A stretch of 64,000 nt of DNA, taken from assembly GCA_016868355.1 (NCBI GenBank), contig VGHB01000006.1, forward strand, positions 1 through 64,000. Direction: 5' to 3'. Shown piece after piece: positions 52,386 through 59,580 of this stretch (position 1 is the stretch's first letter; every line of letters begins with the position of its first letter). The notes beneath the pieces were generated by a model. It worked only from the letters and a program-made list of their open reading frames with translations. It was not told the DNA's origin and ran no database searches. A program made the position numbers and the translations under genes. The stretch is from Betaproteobacteria bacterium (GTDB lineage Bacteria; Pseudomonadota; Gammaproteobacteria; Burkholderiales; Burkholderiaceae_C).

Positions 52386-52503
52386 GCGGGTTTAACAGCC
52401 AGATCAGGAGCTCACCAGTATGGCAGCGCGGCGCCGGGGGCAAAAACCCCTGGCCGCGCCAGACCTCTGCCCGCTAAGCGCGATACTGCGCCACACTGCA
52501 ACG

Positions 52504-53565
52504 ATGAACCTCTCTACCCGCCCCCTGCAGTACCGTACCAGTGCCCCGCAGCTGCAGGGCCTGGCTCAGCCCACGCGCCGCCCCCTCTTGTCGAGTGCAC
52601 TGGCGGCCCTGGCAGCCCTGATGGCCAGCGCGGTGTTGGCGCCACTGGCTGCATCGGCGCAGCCGGTGGCTTGGCCTAAAGCCCAGCCCATCAAGCTGGT
52701 GGCGGTATTTCCGCCGGGCGGGTCGGTGGACCAGGTGGCGCGCATCCTTCAACCCGCACTGCAGCAGCATCTGGGCCAGGCGGTCGTGGTGGACAACCGT
52801 GGCGGTGCCTCAGGCTCCATCGGCACCGGGCAGGTGGCCAAGGCCGAGCCGGACGGATACACCTTTGCTGTGGTGTTCGACACCCATGCAGTAAACCCGG
52901 CCGTGCTGCCAGCCATCCCCTTTGACACGCGCAAAGATTTGGCGTCGGTGGCCATCATCGGCACCGGTGCCATGCTCATAGCCGCGCACGTCGACTCGCC
53001 CTACAAGACCCTTGGTGATGTGGTCAGCGCTGCGCGCACGCGCAACGGCGTGCCCTACGGCACTATAGGTAACGGGAGCCTGGGCCACCTGGCAGTGTCG
53101 CTGCTGGGCAGAGCCCACAACCTGAACTTCCAGCACGTACCCTACCGTGGGGGTGGCCCCCTGGTGAACGACGCAGTGGCGGGCCATGTGCCTGTGAGCA
53201 TCGGGTCGGTCTTCCTGCTCAAGCCCCATATCGACAGCGGCAAGCTGCGCGCCTTGGCGGTCACCACCAGCCGTCGCGTGGCGGCGTTACCCCAGGTTCC
53301 AACCGTGGCTGAAAGCGGTTTCGTGGGATTTGATTCACCCGCTTGGTGGGCGGTGGTAGCACCTGCGCGCACCCCCGCTGATGTGCTTCGCCAAATGAAC
53401 GAAGCCCTCAACGCCGCACTGCGTCAGCCCGATGTGGCGGCTCGACTGGCGGGCCAAGGCATCGAGGTGCGCGGTGGGTCGATGGAAGCAGCACGCAGCT
53501 TCATTGAAGGCCAGATCGACACCTGGGCCAAGGTGGTGAAGGACAACGATATCAAGGCTGACTGA
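52504..53565 (+). CDS. Bug/TctC-family periplasmic solute-binding protein
   Basis: A 353-residue binding protein. The signal peptide (LLSSALAALAALMASAVLA) ends near ASA, then IKLVAVFPPGGSVDQVARIL and VVVDNRGGASGSIGTGQVAKAEPDGYT, the standard Bug pocket segments, with YGTIGNGSLGHLAVSLLGR and VPYRGGGPLVNDAVAGHV. Bug proteins bind carboxylates for tripartite TctAB carriers or sensing; they are abundant in Burkholderiales. ATG 52504 is chosen for the signal peptide. It converges end to end with the next Bug gene. Confidence 0.92.
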   Translation: MNLSTRPLQYRTSAPQLQGLAQPTRRPLLSSALAALAALMASAVLAPLAASAQPVAWPKAQPIKLVAVFPPGGSVDQVARILQPALQQHLGQAVVVDNRGGASGSIGTGQVAKAEPDGYTFAVVFDTHAVNPAVLPAIPFDTRKDLASVAIIGTGAMLIAAHVDSPYKTLGDVVSAARTRNGVPYGTIGNGSLGHLAVSLLGRAHNLNFQHVPYRGGGPLVNDAVAGHVPVSIGSVFLLKPHIDSGKLRALAVTTSRRVAALPQVPTVAESGFVGFDSPAWWAVVAPARTPADVLRQMNEALNAALRQPDVAARLAGQGIEVRGGSMEAARSFIEGQIDTWAKVVKDNDIKAD

Positions 53566-54570
53566 TCACTGCGGTACGAAGCCGCTGGCCTTGATCACCT
53601 GGGACCATGCCAGAGCGTAGCTGCGTTCGCGTTGGGCCAGCTGCTCCCCGCTCATATGTCCCACGGTGATACCCATGGCGCTGAGCTTGTCTTGCATATC
53701 GGCGCGTGCCAAGACCTTGGCTAAGGCTTGAGACCATTTGTCCAAGGCCGCCCGTGGAGTGCCGGCGGGCGCGAACAGACCGTAGTAAGGAACCTCTTCG
53801 AATCCCTTAACCCCCAGCTCGGCGAAGGTCGGCACCTCAGGCATGGTCTTGTCGCGCTGGCTGCCCATGACCGCCACCACCTTCAAGCGCCCAGCCTTGT
53901 GGTGCTCAATGAAATCGGGGATCGAGCCGGTGCCGGCGGTGATCTGCCCGCCCAGCAAGTCTGCGATCATGGGCGCGCTGCCGCGGTAGGGCACCGTCAC
54001 CAAGTCGAGCTTGTAACGGTCGGCCAGCGCCTTGACCGAAAACTCGGGCAGCGAAGCCGGCGCGGGAACCCCCACCGCCCCCTTGCCACCGGCCGCACGC
54101 ACGCTGCCCAGGTAGTCTTGAAACCCACCGGCGGAGCCTGTGCGTGTCGAAAGCGCCAGCGCATTCACAAAGGTACCCATGCCTGCTACAGCCACGAAGT
54201 CTCGGGCGGGCTCAAAGCCGGGGTTCTTGATCGTCAGCGGGATGATGCTGACCGTGTGGTCGTGCGACAGCATCACCGTCAGACCGTCTGCAGGGGCGGC
54301 CTTCAGCGCCTGCGCTGCCAGCTGCCCGCCAGCCCCGGGTTTGTTGTCCACGATAACGGCTTGCCCCAACTCGTCCTTGAGCCGTTCGGCCAAGAGGCGT
54401 GCAATGGCGTCGGTACCACCGCCGGCGGGAAAGCCCACCAGGATGCGGGCGGTCTGTTGCTGCGCCTGTGCTTCAGTGGGCAGCCCAAGCCCAGCCCAGG
54501 TGGTGCAGATGGCCAGCGCCAGCAGGCCAGCCAGCGACCGGCGGCGCGCCTGTGATGCCTTGGCTGGCAA
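53566..54570 (-). CDS. Bug/TctC-family periplasmic solute-binding protein
   Basis: A 334-residue protein with signal peptide RRRSLAGLLALAICTTWAGL (Tat-like RRR), then ILVGFPAGGGTDAIARLLAE, VIVDNKPGAGGQLAAQALKAAPADG and VPYRGSAPMIADLLGGQI, the Bug family hallmarks. No TctA or TctB membrane partner is nearby, as is common. Its stop touches that of the preceding convergent Bug gene (53565/53566). Confidence 0.92.
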   Translation of the reverse strand: MPAKASQARRRSLAGLLALAICTTWAGLGLPTEAQAQQQTARILVGFPAGGGTDAIARLLAERLKDELGQAVIVDNKPGAGGQLAAQALKAAPADGLTVMLSHDHTVSIIPLTIKNPGFEPARDFVAVAGMGTFVNALALSTRTGSAGGFQDYLGSVRAAGGKGAVGVPAPASLPEFSVKALADRYKLDLVTVPYRGSAPMIADLLGGQITAGTGSIPDFIEHHKAGRLKVVAVMGSQRDKTMPEVPTFAELGVKGFEEVPYYGLFAPAGTPRAALDKWSQALAKVLARADMQDKLSAMGITVGHMSGEQLAQRERSYALAWSQVIKASGFVPQ

Positions 54571-54676: not shown

Positions 54677-55201
54677 TCAGTGTTCATGCATCCACGCGGC
54701 GTGGCGCGGGGCGCGCTTGGTATGGGCCCATGCATCCAACATCGCCCACTTCACTTCATCGAGCTTTTGCAGCATGTCCGGGGTGCTGGTGTCGCAAGCC
54801 AACTCAAGCCGATGGCCATTGGGGTCGAAGAAGTAGATGCTTTGGAACAGAGTGTGGTTGGTGGGGCCGATCACCTCGATGCCGGCAGCCTGCAGCTGGG
54901 CTTTGCGGGCCAGCAGTTCATCAATGGAGCCCACTTTCAAGGCGATGTGCTGCACCCAATTCGGCGTGTTGGGGTCGCGTCCCATTTCCGGTGAATTGGG
55001 CAGTTCAAAGAAGGCCAAGACATTGCCGTTACCGGCATCCAGGAAGACATGCATGTAGGGGTCGGGCGCCTTGGTGGAGGGCACCTCGTCTTCGGAAATG
55101 GCCAGCATGAAGTCCATGCCCAGGTGCTGCCGGTACCACAACACGGTTTCACGGGCATCCCTGCAGCGGTAGGCCACATGGTGAATTTTCTGGATGGACA
55201 T
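54677..55201 (-). CDS. VOC-superfamily protein (glyoxalase-like)
   Basis: A 174-residue protein: IQKIHHVAYRCRDARETVLWYR (first metal His), MHVFLDAGNGNVLAFFELP, NWVQHIALKVGSIDELLARKAQ (second) and YFFDPNGHRLELAC (Glu). Its use is unknown; many such proteins are annotated dioxygenases. The frame extends to 55252, but ATG 55201 is the natural start. It stands alone between a Bug gene and the divergent PPi-PFK gene. Confidence 0.85.
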   Translation of the reverse strand: MSIQKIHHVAYRCRDARETVLWYRQHLGMDFMLAISEDEVPSTKAPDPYMHVFLDAGNGNVLAFFELPNSPEMGRDPNTPNWVQHIALKVGSIDELLARKAQLQAAGIEVIGPTNHTLFQSIYFFDPNGHRLELACDTSTPDMLQKLDEVKWAMLDAWAHTKRAPRHAAWMHEH

Positions 55202-55359
55202 GGCGCCGGCTCCTTGAGCGTACCTTCCGCGTGCCTTCTTAGGAATTTGCACGCTGCAAATTCACTTGCATTTACCCGATGCTTCTATTCTAGGCCGCCG
55301 TAAGCGATTAGAGTAGCGCAACACCAAACACCCCGCCACCGACTTCAGGAGCCAGCCGT

Positions 55360-56601
55360 ATGTCGCAGATCAAGGTGCTCGTCGCCCAGGGGGGAGGCCC
55401 CACGGCCGTCATCAACCAGTCCTTGGTGGGGGCGGTGTTGGCGGCCCGAGCCTTTACAAAGGTGCAAGCGGTGTACGGTGCACGCCATGGGGTACGCGGT
55501 GTGTTGCAGGAAGACTTCGTTGACCTCACCAGCGAAGATATCAACCACCTCGAGCGCGTGGCGGCCAGCCCGGCTTCGGCCTTGGGGTCTACCCGTGACA
55601 AACCCGATACCGCCTACTGCCTTCAGATGCTGGAGGTGATCAAGGCACACGGCATCACCCATTTCTTCTACATCGGCGGCAATGATTCGTCCGACACGGT
55701 GCGTATTCTGATGGAAGAATCCCAGCGTGCGGGCCACGCGCTGTCGGGCTTGCACATTCCCAAGACCATCGATAACGACCTGATGGGTAACGACCACACA
55801 CCGGGCTTTCCCTCGGCCGCCAAGTTTGTGGCGCAGGCCTTCGCAGGGGCAGACTTGGACAATGCAGCCTTGCCTGGCGTGTATGTGGCGGTGGTGATGG
55901 GCCGCCATGCGGGGTTCTTGACGGCCGCTGCCGCCCTGGCCCGCCAGGGTGTGGACGATGGCCCGCACCTCATCTACTTGCCTGAACGGGTGTTCGACAT
56001 TGACCGCTTCTTGGCTGACGTGAAGTGCACCCACGAACGTCTGGGCCGTTGCGTGGTGGCGGTCAGCGAAGGCGTGCACGATGCCAGTGGCCAGCCCATC
56101 ATTTCGCAGCTGGCGCAGCGCAAAGGCGGCTCAGCCGAACGGGATGCGCACGGCAATGTACAACTCTCGGGCACCGGAGCGCTGGCCGACCTGTTGTGTG
56201 AGGAAATCAAGAACCGCCTGGGCATCAAGCGAGTGCGGGGCGACACCTTCGGCTATCTGCAGCGCAGCTTTCTGGGGTGTGTGAGCGATGTGGATGCCCG
56301 CGAGGCGCGTGACGTAGGGGCTGTTGCAGTGCGGATGGCGCTTACGCATGGCGCCAGCGGCTCGGTGGCCATTCGGCGCGACGCCTCAGCGCCGGGCTAT
56401 GTGAGCGAATACGCCCTGCAGCCCTTGGAAGCCGTAGCGGCCAAGACACGCGTGATGGATGCCAGCTTCATTCACGAAGCGGGTAATGACGTGACGCCGG
56501 CTTTTGTGGAGTACCTGCGGCCTCTGTTGGGCAGCAACCTGCTGCAGGCCGCGCGGCTGAGGAGCCGGCCAGTGGCCAAGCGGCTGAAGCCCCAGGGCTG
56601 A
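55360..56601 (+). CDS. pfp: PPi-dependent 6-phosphofructokinase
   Basis: A 413-residue PFK-family enzyme. [30 protein letters not shown] and [19 protein letters not shown] are the substrate motifs; GGNDS with Asp in the second glycine-loop position is the PPi-dependent signature, where ATP enzymes have Gly. [16 protein letters not shown] and [16 protein letters not shown] follow. It reversibly phosphorylates fructose 6-phosphate with pyrophosphate, so it can serve glycolysis and gluconeogenesis. The neighbouring fbp gene is decayed. Confidence 0.93.
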
Positions 56602-56626
56602 GGCGGTACGCTTCGGGCGTGCTTCG

Positions 56627-56882
56627 CTATCGGGCTGGTACCGATGCTCACGTTCACATTTATGTTGGACGAGCCATCCAAAGGGTCGAACAGCAAGAGG
56701 TACTCGCCCTTGGGGGTATCGGTCGGGCACCGGGTGGATGCTGTCCAGCTCCTCGCTGGTCGTGGCAGCGAGATGCCCGCCCCACTGGTTAGCTTCGATC
56801 ATCAGGCGCAAAGGGCGGGGATGTTGCCCTCATGGCGCTACTGCTCCACCAGGTATTGGGTCAGCCTGATGCGCTTGCTCAT
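56627..56882 (-). pseudogene. fbp: Decayed fructose-1,6-bisphosphatase (class I) gene
   Basis: From an ATG at 56882 the minus strand reads MSKRIRLTQYLVEQ, a TAG stop, then RHEGNIPA, the normal start of fbp. A shifted frame continues [21 protein letters not shown] and [12 protein letters not shown], with about 50 residues missing between the two. Another shift gives [19 protein letters not shown], the metal-binding core. After that homology ends; about two thirds of the gene is gone. It lies just behind pepN, as an intact fbp does in relatives (family knowledge). Confidence 0.88.
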
Positions 56883-56886
56883 GATT

Positions 56887-59580
56887 TCAGCGCTCCACCA
56901 GCGCGCGGCTGACGATTTCCCGAACATCTGCACTGAGCTCGCTGCGCGCCGCCACGCGCGACAGGGCCTCGCGCGCTGCGCTGCGCCAGGGTTCGGCCAG
57001 GGGCTGCCAACGCTCCATCACCCGCGCAATCCGGGACGCCAGCTGGGGATTGAAGCTGTCGAACTCCACCACGCGATCGGCCCAGAAGACATAGCCTGCC
57101 GCATCACTGCGGTGAAAGGCACCGGGGTTGGCCATGGCGTAGGACGCCACCAGGCTGCGTGCACGATTGGGGTTACGCGCCGAATAGTCCGGGTGATGCA
57201 GCAGGGCCTTGACCCGCTCGAAGACGCGGCCATCGCGCTCGGGTGCCGTGGCTTGCACACTGAACCACTTATCGATCGCCAGCGCTTCGTCTGAGAAGCG
57301 CGCATGGAATTGGGCTAGCGCCGCATCGGCCAGCTCGGCATGGCCGTGCACCAGGGCTACCAGGGCGCCCATGCGTTCGGTCATGTTGGCAGCGTCCTTC
57401 ACCTGTTGGTAGGCGCGCCCGGGCCATAAGCGGTCGCCGGTGGTGCCGGCGTGGCGCACCAGCATGTACAGGGCCAGGTTGGCCAGGGCACGTTGGCCGC
57501 TTTGTCGTGCATCGGGGCGGTAGCCTTCCCGGTGCTGCATGGCCTGATAGGTAGCGGTCCAGTCTTCGTGCAGCGCTGCGGACAGCTGGCTGAGCATCGA
57601 CTCGCGTGCGCGGCTTACGTGCTGCGGGTTGACGCTCTGGAGTTGCTCGTACAGCAGCTTCTCGGAGGGTACCTGGAGGGCCAGTTCCTTGAAGGCAGGG
57701 TCTAGCTGGGGGTGTTGCAGCAGGCTGCGCAGGGCTTGCAGGAAGTCGGCACCCAAGGCCACGTCGCGGCCTTCGGCGATGGCCGGCAGCAGTTGCGCCG
57801 TCATCAGGCGCTGCCCTGCTTCCCAGCGGTTGAAGGCGTCCGTGTCGTGTGCCAGCAGTACCGTCAACTCGGCCTGGGCCAGGCCATCCTCCAGCACCAC
57901 CGGTGCAGACAAGCCGCGCATCAGCGAAGGCACGGGTTCTTGCGTCACACCGGTGAAGGTGTAGTGGGCTTGCGCCTGGTCCAGCACCAGCACCGTTTCC
58001 AGGCCACGGTCGGCCGCATCGCCTTCGAGCTGCAGGGGCAGGGCGGTGCCATCGAGGCCCACCAGGCCGATGGCCACGGGGATCACGAAGGGCTGCTTGT
58101 GGTCTTGGCCGGGTGTGGCGGGGCAGTTTTGGTTCAGGGTGAGGGTGTAGCGCTGCGCATCAGCGTCGTACCGACCCTGGGCTTGAACCCGGGGCGTTCC
58201 AGCCTGTGCGTACCAGCGCTTGAAGGTCTCCAGGCGGGCGCTCAACTCACTGCCTGGGTTGGCATCGGCCACGGCTTGTGCGAAGTCGTCGCAGGTGACC
58301 GCCTGGCCGTCGTGGCGCTTGAAGTACTCGGTCATGCCGCGGGCAAAGCCCTCGCGGCCCACCAAGGTCTGCATCATGCGCACCACTTCAGCACCCTTGT
58401 TGTAGACCGTGGGCGTGTAGAAGTTGTCGATGGCTTGGTACTGGTCGGGGCGCACCGGGTGGGCCATGGGGCCGGAATCTTCAGGGAACTGCGCCTCGCG
58501 CAGGGCGCGCACATCCCCAATGCGGCACACCGCACGCGCGCTGGCGCTGCCGGCCATGTCCATACTGAATTCCTGATCCCGGAACACCGTCAGGCCTTCC
58601 TTGAGCGACAGCTGGAACCAGTCGCGGCAGGTGATGCGATTACCCGTCCAGTTGTGGAAGTACTCGTGGGCCACCACGCTTTCGACGTTGAAGAAGTCGG
58701 TGTCGGTGGCAGTGGCCGGGCTGGCCAGAACAAACTTTGTGTTGAAGATGTTCAGGCCCTTGTTCTCCATCGCGCCCATATTGAAGTCGCCCACGGCCAC
58801 GATCATGAAGCGCTCCAGGTCCAGCGGCAGGCCAAAGCGCTGCTCGTCCCAGATCAGCGAGGCCACCAGGGAATTCATCGCGTGTTCGGTCTTCTCCAGG
58901 TCGCCCCGGCGTACGTAGACCTGCAGCAGGTGGTCTTTACCTGCGCGGGTGCGGATGTGCTGTTCACGGCACACCAGGTCTGCGGCCACCAAGGCAAACA
59001 GGTAGCTGGGCTTGGGGAAGGGGTCATGCCACTTGGCGTAGTGGCGGCCGCTGTCCAACTCGCCTTGCTCCACCAGGTTGCCGTTGGACAGCAGCACCGG
59101 CAGCAAGGCCTTGTTTGCACGCAGCGTGACGGTGTAGACGGCCATTACATCGGGGCGGTCCAGGAAGTAGGTGATTCGTCGAAACCCTTCGGCCTCGCAC
59201 TGGGTGAAAAAGCCACCGCCCGAGGTGTACAGGCCACTCAAGTGGGTATTCTTTTCCGGCGCCACCGTGTTGCGGATTTCCAGCGTGAAGCGCTCGCCCT
59301 TGGCCACGTTCGGTGGCGTGTCGATGACGAGCATGCCGTCCTCGTGGCGAAAGCTCACGCTCTCGCCGTTGGCCAGCACCCGCAGCAGGTTCAGATCTTC
59401 GCCGTGCAGGCGCAGGGCCGGAGCGGTCTCTCCCGCGGCGTTACGCTCGATCTCGAGTTTGCTGGCGACGATGGTCTTGGCCGGGTCGAGGTCAAACGTG
59501 AGGTCCACGCTGCGGATCCAGTAGTCGGGTTCGCGGTAGTCCAGTCGGTTGACAGTGATGGGGGCGGTACCTTCTCGCAT
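56887..59580 (-). CDS. pepN: Aminopeptidase N (M1 family)
   Basis: An 897-residue M1 metallopeptidase. The exopeptidase motif GDFNMGAMENKGLNIFN and the zinc site VVAHEYFHNWTGNRITCRDWFQLSLKEGLTVFRDQEF (HExxH-x18-E) are intact, and the C-terminal superhelical domain is complete. It trims N-terminal residues from peptides in the cytoplasm. Length matches PepN (about 870-900). A 669-residue frame on the opposite strand is only its shadow. Confidence 0.97.
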   Translation of the reverse strand: MREGTAPITVNRLDYREPDYWIRSVDLTFDLDPAKTIVASKLEIERNAAGETAPALRLHGEDLNLLRVLANGESVSFRHEDGMLVIDTPPNVAKGERFTLEIRNTVAPEKNTHLSGLYTSGGGFFTQCEAEGFRRITYFLDRPDVMAVYTVTLRANKALLPVLLSNGNLVEQGELDSGRHYAKWHDPFPKPSYLFALVAADLVCREQHIRTRAGKDHLLQVYVRRGDLEKTEHAMNSLVASLIWDEQRFGLPLDLERFMIVAVGDFNMGAMENKGLNIFNTKFVLASPATATDTDFFNVESVVAHEYFHNWTGNRITCRDWFQLSLKEGLTVFRDQEFSMDMAGSASARAVCRIGDVRALREAQFPEDSGPMAHPVRPDQYQAIDNFYTPTVYNKGAEVVRMMQTLVGREGFARGMTEYFKRHDGQAVTCDDFAQAVADANPGSELSARLETFKRWYAQAGTPRVQAQGRYDADAQRYTLTLNQNCPATPGQDHKQPFVIPVAIGLVGLDGTALPLQLEGDAADRGLETVLVLDQAQAHYTFTGVTQEPVPSLMRGLSAPVVLEDGLAQAELTVLLAHDTDAFNRWEAGQRLMTAQLLPAIAEGRDVALGADFLQALRSLLQHPQLDPAFKELALQVPSEKLLYEQLQSVNPQHVSRARESMLSQLSAALHEDWTATYQAMQHREGYRPDARQSGQRALANLALYMLVRHAGTTGDRLWPGRAYQQVKDAANMTERMGALVALVHGHAELADAALAQFHARFSDEALAIDKWFSVQATAPERDGRVFERVKALLHHPDYSARNPNRARSLVASYAMANPGAFHRSDAAGYVFWADRVVEFDSFNPQLASRIARVMERWQPLAEPWRSAAREALSRVAARSELSADVREIVSRALVER

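What the first reader, a model, noticed from the sequence alone, without database searches (positions are those of the whole stretch)
55360..56882. fbp decayed beside a PPi-dependent phosphofructokinase
The fructose-1,6-bisphosphatase gene behind pepN has a stop codon, shifts, an internal loss and no 3' part, while an intact reversible PPi-PFK lies next to it. PPi-PFK can replace FBPase in gluconeogenesis, so enzyme replacement may be frozen here in mid-decay.
Basis: partly seen in the sequence, partly recalled or inferred. Interest (0 to 1): 0.65.

Follow-up and report, generated by a model that had tools for sequence, protein, structure and literature searches.

The report
Decaying FBPase gene beside PPi phosphofructokinase
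A betaproteobacterium is losing its everyday fructose-bisphosphatase gene next to a reversible pyrophosphate-dependent enzyme, while a leftover Calvin-cycle copy of the same enzyme stays intact; many relatives have lost the same gene from this very spot.

Summary
Observation confirmed: between pepN and an intact PPi-phosphofructokinase (PFP) lies a dead class I FBPase gene with a TAG stop, 1-nt shifts, a ~144-nt internal deletion and no 3' part. Three congeners carry intact fbp in this slot. But RuBisCO is deleted from that operon (cbbL and cbbZ debris remain), so cbbF is stranded; it keeps the hallmark motifs and evolves under constraint. Congener G002, whose operon also lost RuBisCO, shows the reverse: fbp intact, cbbF without key residues and without detectable constraint. 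Best reading: after autotrophy was lost, one of two FBPases became redundant; here the housekeeping copy is decaying. PFP is at least permissive: in 266 good family genomes, 26 of 28 lacking housekeeping fbp carry PFP, against 69 of 238 others. In all 21 genomes found with pfp directly beside pepN (chosen subset), fbp is gone; 11 good genomes have no class I FBPase, 10 with PFP. Replacement by PFP is thus supported family-wide but not needed to explain this genome. Whether PFP alone carries gluconeogenesis is an open question these genomes make testable.

The parts
55360..56601 (+). intact PPi-dependent phosphofructokinase (PFP, type A)
   Evidence: NCBIfam NF010675 diphosphate--F6P 1-phosphotransferase 471 bits vs cut-off 273; motifs GGNDS and PKTIDND
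56811..56882 (-). fbp remnant, codons 1-24, with an in-frame TAG at 56840-56838
56683..56805 (-). fbp remnant, codons 75-115, after the internal deletion
56634..56726 (-). fbp remnant, codons 101-131, shifted frame, end of homology
   Evidence: PF00316 match 31.7 bits at 56637-56714, below that family's cut-off of 34.8
56887..59580 (-). pepN (aminopeptidase N), 897 aa open frame, upstream neighbour in the pepN-fbp order
54677..55252 (-). VOC family gene next to pfp, same neighbour in G002 and G003

Best explanation
The housekeeping class I FBPase gene is a pseudogene that died on this species' own branch, probably not long ago. It became dispensable because two other enzymes can convert fructose 1,6-bisphosphate to fructose 6-phosphate: CbbF, left over from a Calvin operon whose RuBisCO has been deleted, and the reversible PFP next door. 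CbbF is most likely the FBPase now in use, since it is kept intact by selection; PFP works as the only PfkA-family phosphofructokinase and can take part of the reverse flux. Shown: the lesions, intact fbp in three congeners, the RuBisCO loss, integrity of and constraint on cbbF, and the family-wide link of fbp loss with PFP. Inferred: enzyme activities, which enzyme carries the flux, and that RuBisCO was lost before fbp.
For: Intact fbp in the same slot in G002, G003, G004. Only two PF00316 places in this genome: the remnant and cbbF. cbbF is followed by prk and preceded by a cbbR-like LysR gene. No RuBisCO match in the genome; in the cbbR-cbbF gap an 81-nt cbbL piece is fused to broken cbbZ, and cbbS and cbbX are gone, while G001, G003 and G004 have the full operon. 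Branch counts: cbbF-unique amino-acid changes 6 of 273 invariant columns in this genome, 2-3 of 269-270 in G001, G003 and G004, 45 of 312 in G002; N/S ratio 0.12 here, 1.29 in G002. G002 cbbF lost [16 protein letters not shown] and QKKLD, all kept here. Remnant: changes unique to the window 10 of 68, 3 of 72, 8 of 44 at codon positions 1, 2, 3, i.e. relaxed but not fully neutral, hence rather recent (small numbers).
Against: cbbF and prk are probably under CbbR control (inferred from position) and might not be expressed during gluconeogenesis. cbbF in this genome has a slightly higher N/S ratio (0.12) than in the RuBisCO-bearing congeners (0.055-0.078). The strong family link between PFP and fbp loss suggests that PFP rather than cbbF is the usual enabling factor. 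Bifunctional FBP aldolase/phosphatase (PF01950), PfkB kinases and inositol-phosphatase side activity were not tested. Trees disagree on the branching of G000, G001 and G002: four of six join G000 with G002 (52-74% support), the two prk plus cbbR trees do not, so the order and number of losses are not fixed. G002 is 76% complete.
Confidence: 0.68

Rival explanations
1. PFP run in reverse has replaced FBPase; cbbF is only a relic that has not yet decayed.
For: 26 of 28 good genomes lacking housekeeping fbp carry PFP vs 69 of 238 others; 10 of 11 good genomes with no class I FBPase carry PFP, and 0 of the 18 FBPase-less genomes has GlpX; all 21 genomes found with pfp within 150 bp of pepN lack housekeeping fbp. 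In G009 fbp is gone, RuBisCO is gone and cbbF has lost hallmark residues, while PFP sits behind pepN.
Against: cbbF here is intact and constrained, unlike in G002 and G009 (constraint in G009 not measured). PFP coexists with intact fbp in G002-G004, G063, G174 and in 11 further genomes; 69 of 95 good PFP genomes were not shown to lack fbp.
Confidence: 0.2
2. The cell no longer needs gluconeogenesis through FBP (sugar-fed or otherwise dependent life), so any FBPase can go.
For: Modest 2.70 Mb genome and loss of autotrophy.
Against: cbbF stays under constraint; congener G004, which keeps fbp, has 2.6 Mb at 90% completeness.
Confidence: 0.08
3. Assembly or sequencing artefact.
For: None found; reads were not available.
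Against: Several independent lesions plus excess changes at codon positions 1 and 2; flanking genes are open; genome 99.99% complete in 40 contigs.
Confidence: 0.02

Closest known systems
PPi-PFK as a possible two-way enzyme (review PMC12203962, passages seen)
   Same: Reversible PPi-PFK next to a lost FBPase; the review says one might expect FBPase genes to be inactivated or lost in such organisms.
   Different: The two bacteria it names there, Amycolatopsis methanolica and Porphyromonas gingivalis, still carry an FBPase gene; here fbp loss is seen in progress and repeated across a family. A Calvin-cycle FBPase survives in this genome.
Xylella fastidiosa, FBPase gene absent without deleterious effect (PMC7112962, passages seen)
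   Same: Missing FBPase with the reaction carried by an unidentified route.
   Different: That paper proposes an inositol-phosphatase side activity; the words phosphofructokinase and pyrophosphate do not occur in its main text.
FBPase copies in Calvin-cycle operons (PMC7895386, passages seen)
   Same: FBPase genes next to RuBisCO and prk, with raised copy number in Calvin-positive genomes.
   Different: Here RuBisCO is lost afterwards and either copy may then decay.

Membership tests
class I FBPase pseudogene (window 56634-56882) | homology to class I FBPase in the pepN-fbp position of congeners | tested here: met
class I FBPase pseudogene (window 56634-56882) | no open reading frame able to give the full enzyme | tested here: met
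   TAG, shifts, deletion, about 200 C-terminal codons absent
PPi-dependent phosphofructokinase | over the family score cut-off, and PKTIDxD signature with Lys | tested here: met
   NF010675 471 bits vs 273; PKTIDND and GGNDS; meaning of Lys from PMC12203962
PPi-dependent phosphofructokinase | PPi-dependent, reversible activity | not testable with these tools
   needs enzyme assay
CbbF, Calvin-cycle class I FBPase (G000:C9, outside window) | class I FBPase next to prk and cbbR | tested here: met
   NF006779 484 bits vs 349, prk NF011997 497 vs 362; order. The CbbR model scored below its cut-off, 285 vs 450 bits, so 'cbbR-like'
CbbF, Calvin-cycle class I FBPase (G000:C9, outside window) | hallmark residues [16 protein letters not shown] (catalytic roles recalled) | tested here: met
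functional Calvin cycle in this genome | RuBisCO large subunit | tested here: not met
   0 PF00016 matches in the genome; cbbL debris only

The most novel reading that the evidence does not exclude
In this bacterial family PFP repeatedly and in place displaces the housekeeping FBPase at the pepN locus (pepN-fbp-pfp to pepN-pfp), giving species that run the F6P/FBP step in both directions with one PPi enzyme; the window shows that displacement halfway. In addition, stranded cbb operons without RuBisCO are put to new use: cbbF as housekeeping FBPase, and prk kept perhaps to make RuBP as a signal for CbbR.
Probability: 0.35. Interest if true: 0.75.

Novelty: new variant of a known kind. Interest (0 to 1): 0.55.

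Why it matters
[quoted passage not shown] The family examined here gives a natural series: intact pepN-fbp-pfp, remnant, clean excision, and genomes with no class I FBPase and no GlpX but with PFP. It also gives a reciprocal-loss pair of congeners that shows how a pathway relic can become the only intact copy of a central enzyme.

Tried and rejected
Considered and rejected: (1) PFP as sole FBPase substitute in this genome: rejected as the leading reading because cbbF is intact and constrained. (2) GlpX as substitute: none in the genome and none in 23 genomes tested. (3) ATP-PFK of the PfkA family: no second PF00365 match. (4) Recent acquisition of pfp as trigger: rejected, the same pfp is in congeners with intact fbp. 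(5) One shared RuBisCO loss in G000 and G002: left open; four of six trees join them (52-74%), two do not, and the debris differs. (6) A distant search of plasmids with the locus (5 of 20 records seen) gave VOC-gene matches in 4 rows and a match without annotated feature in the fifth; none covered 80% of the query. (7) Orphan-prk candidates set aside: G151 has a cbbS piece at its contig end; G173 has only a weak partial RuBisCO match. (8) Literature searches listed no paper whose title or abstract start told of fbp loss beside pfp in this group; this is an open-access library only and only the rows shown were seen.

Limits of counts: genome lists were typed by hand from the tables; 'PFP present' means best E below 1e-40. 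Six genomes (G104, G194, G201, G206, G251, G267) were at first counted as having fbp and moved, where identity to housekeeping fbp falls into two groups, 80-84% (fbp) and 44-62% (cbbF-like). The other genomes among the 238 were, apart from the controls, not rechecked in this way. G104 and G267 (and G048, G115, G165, G282) are below the quality limit and not in the 28. Fisher tests ignore relatedness; the 28 lacking genomes fall in 18 genera, 16 of them with PFP (counted by hand). Flanks of pfp were read in 47 of 109 PFP genomes (plus G003 and locus L087, whose genome was not searched for fbp), chosen because they lacked fbp or as controls, so 21 of 21 is not a random sample; 6 of the 21 had been picked as controls with an FBPase match and proved to lack housekeeping fbp. 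Four of the 21 (G048, G104, G267, G282) are incomplete or contaminated assemblies.

Full report
What is there. The window (G000:C6:1-64000) belongs to a 2.70 Mb genome in 40 contigs, 99.99% complete. On the + strand an open 413-aa PFP runs from 55360 to 56601; on the - strand pepN runs 59580 to 56887. Between them, from the ATG at 56882 to about 56634, lies an fbp remnant. Against intact fbp genes of congeners G002, G003 and G004 it shows a TAG, a 1-nt loss, an internal deletion of about 144 nt, a 1-nt gain, and no homology beyond about codon 131-139 of 334. In G002 two CTGAT-type repeats lie 144 nt apart, near the ends of the deletion, which suggests (inference) loss by recombination between short repeats.

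The state in congeners. So PFP predates the loss and lives with intact fbp. G001 could not be scored: its pepN-fbp region was not found and it is 78% complete.

When fbp died. Among positions where the three intact relatives agree, changes unique to the window are 10 of 68, 3 of 72 and 8 of 44 at codon positions 1, 2 and 3; the functional pair G002-G004 differs at 5 of 75, 0 of 74 and 19 of 75. The numbers are small but lie between constraint and neutrality, so the gene probably worked for part of the time since the split from G002.

The other FBPase. PF00316 finds two places in the genome: the remnant and an intact gene at G000:C9. The latter is followed by prk and has a divergent cbbR-like LysR gene: it is cbbF. 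GlpX is absent and PFP is the only PF00365 match.

A broken Calvin operon. G001, G003 and G004 have cbbR, cbbL, cbbS, cbbX, cbbZ, cbbF, prk; G000 and G002 have no RuBisCO match (G002 is 76% complete, but its cbbR and cbbF lie side by side on one contig). In G000 the cbbR-cbbF gap holds a 27-codon piece of cbbL fused to broken cbbZ; in G002 only a weak 47-nt cbbZ trace is left. The branching of G000, G001 and G002 is open: four of six trees join G000 with G002 (52-74% support), while the prk plus cbbR trees give other groupings with 34% and 58%.

Reciprocal fates. G002 kept fbp, and its cbbF, though an open frame, has SEG for SEE, DALDGASN for [13 protein letters not shown] for YEANP and no QKKLD, with 45 unique amino-acid changes in 312 columns (N/S 1.29). 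G000 lost fbp and its cbbF keeps all these motifs, with 6 in 273 (N/S 0.12). prk shows the same tendency: G002 11 of 274 (0.65), G000 3 of 266 (0.15). Catalytic roles of these residues in FBPase are recalled, not from a call.

The family. The PFP query was matched strongly in 109 of 299 family genomes (80 type A, 68% identity or more; 29 type B, 37-41%). Class I FBPase was found in 281 of 299, or 255 of 266 good genomes. Of the 11 good genomes without it, 10 have PFP, against 85 of 255 (p 2e-4). Counting genomes that lack housekeeping fbp (no class I FBPase, or only cbbF-like), 26 of 28 have PFP against 69 of 238 (p 4e-11; without G000 25 of 27, p 1e-10). GlpX was found in 0 of the 18 FBPase-less genomes. 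Genomes were treated as independent. The two lacking genomes without PFP are G016 and G018.

The slot behind pepN. In G063 and G174 the order is pepN, fbp, type B pfp on one strand; in G251 of the same genus pepN is followed by pfp after 59 bp and fbp is gone. In G121 fbp stands between pepN and type A pfp; in G213 and G282 of the same genus pfp and pepN are 53 and 120 bp apart without fbp. With the window this makes three within-genus contrasts. All 21 genomes found with pfp within 150 bp of pepN lack housekeeping fbp (17 type B, 4 type A). Of 19 genomes fetched as controls because they had an FBPase match, 6 had pfp beside pepN and all 6 proved to have only cbbF-like FBPase; 2 had fbp between pepN and pfp; and 11 of 11 with pfp elsewhere have housekeeping fbp. 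Against a strict rule, nine lacking genomes (G035, G241, G160, G207, G165, G064, G175, G252, G077) have pfp without pepN in the stretch read, so adjacency is not required; one more, G115, has pfp at a contig end and could not be judged. Flanks were read in a chosen subset (47 of 109 PFP genomes).

A third case. G009 has PFP behind pepN, no housekeeping fbp, cbbX debris and no RuBisCO match, and a cbbF with SEA, DALDGVSN and no QKKLD but with YEANP kept. If that cbbF is dead, PFP is the candidate for the step; GlpX was not tested in G009.

Conclusion. Shown: a dead fbp with intact orthologues in three congeners, an intact constrained cbbF in a RuBisCO-less operon, the reverse outcome in a congener, and a strong family-wide tie between PFP and loss of fbp. 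Inferred: CbbF is the working FBPase here, and PFP made or makes the loss tolerable. The idea that PPi-PFK could make FBPase dispensable is in print, and so is the statement that its use as main enzyme in both directions is undetermined (PMC12203962, passages). PMC7112962 (passages) reports absence of FBPase in Xylella with an unidentified route. PMC7895386 (passages) reports raised FBPase copy number in Calvin-positive genomes. Other papers were seen only as search listings with the start of their abstracts.

Noticed in passing
L166 (G148), L167 (G231), L168 (G084), L169 (G187), L165 (G009), L171 (G251), L004 (G000), L128 (G002): Phosphoribulokinase without RuBisCO: of 106 family genomes with strong prk, 9 have no PF00016 match and one a weak partial match; G151 is a contig break and G173 is unclear. 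prk is constrained between RuBisCO-less pairs: G148-G231 dN/dS 0.065, G084-G187 0.091, so orphan PRK probably has a use outside carbon fixation.
   Followed up: partly
L128 6128-7229 (G002) and L165 8609-9660 (G009): Two genomes without RuBisCO match carry open but apparently inactive cbbF genes with parallel changes in the [11 protein letters not shown] and QKKLD motifs.
   Followed up: partly
L124 1-1914 (G003 pepN): pepN of G003 has 65 unique amino-acid changes in 391 columns (N/S 0.99), against 2-11 in its congeners: relaxed, chimeric or transferred.
   Followed up: no
L048 3219-7221: In one Burkholderiales MAG pepN and a type A pfp lie in tandem on one strand about 100 bp apart without fbp between them.
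   Followed up: no
window 52420-54570: Two convergent genes that look like Bug/TctC-type periplasmic binding proteins (judged by eye from the ORF translations).
   Followed up: no
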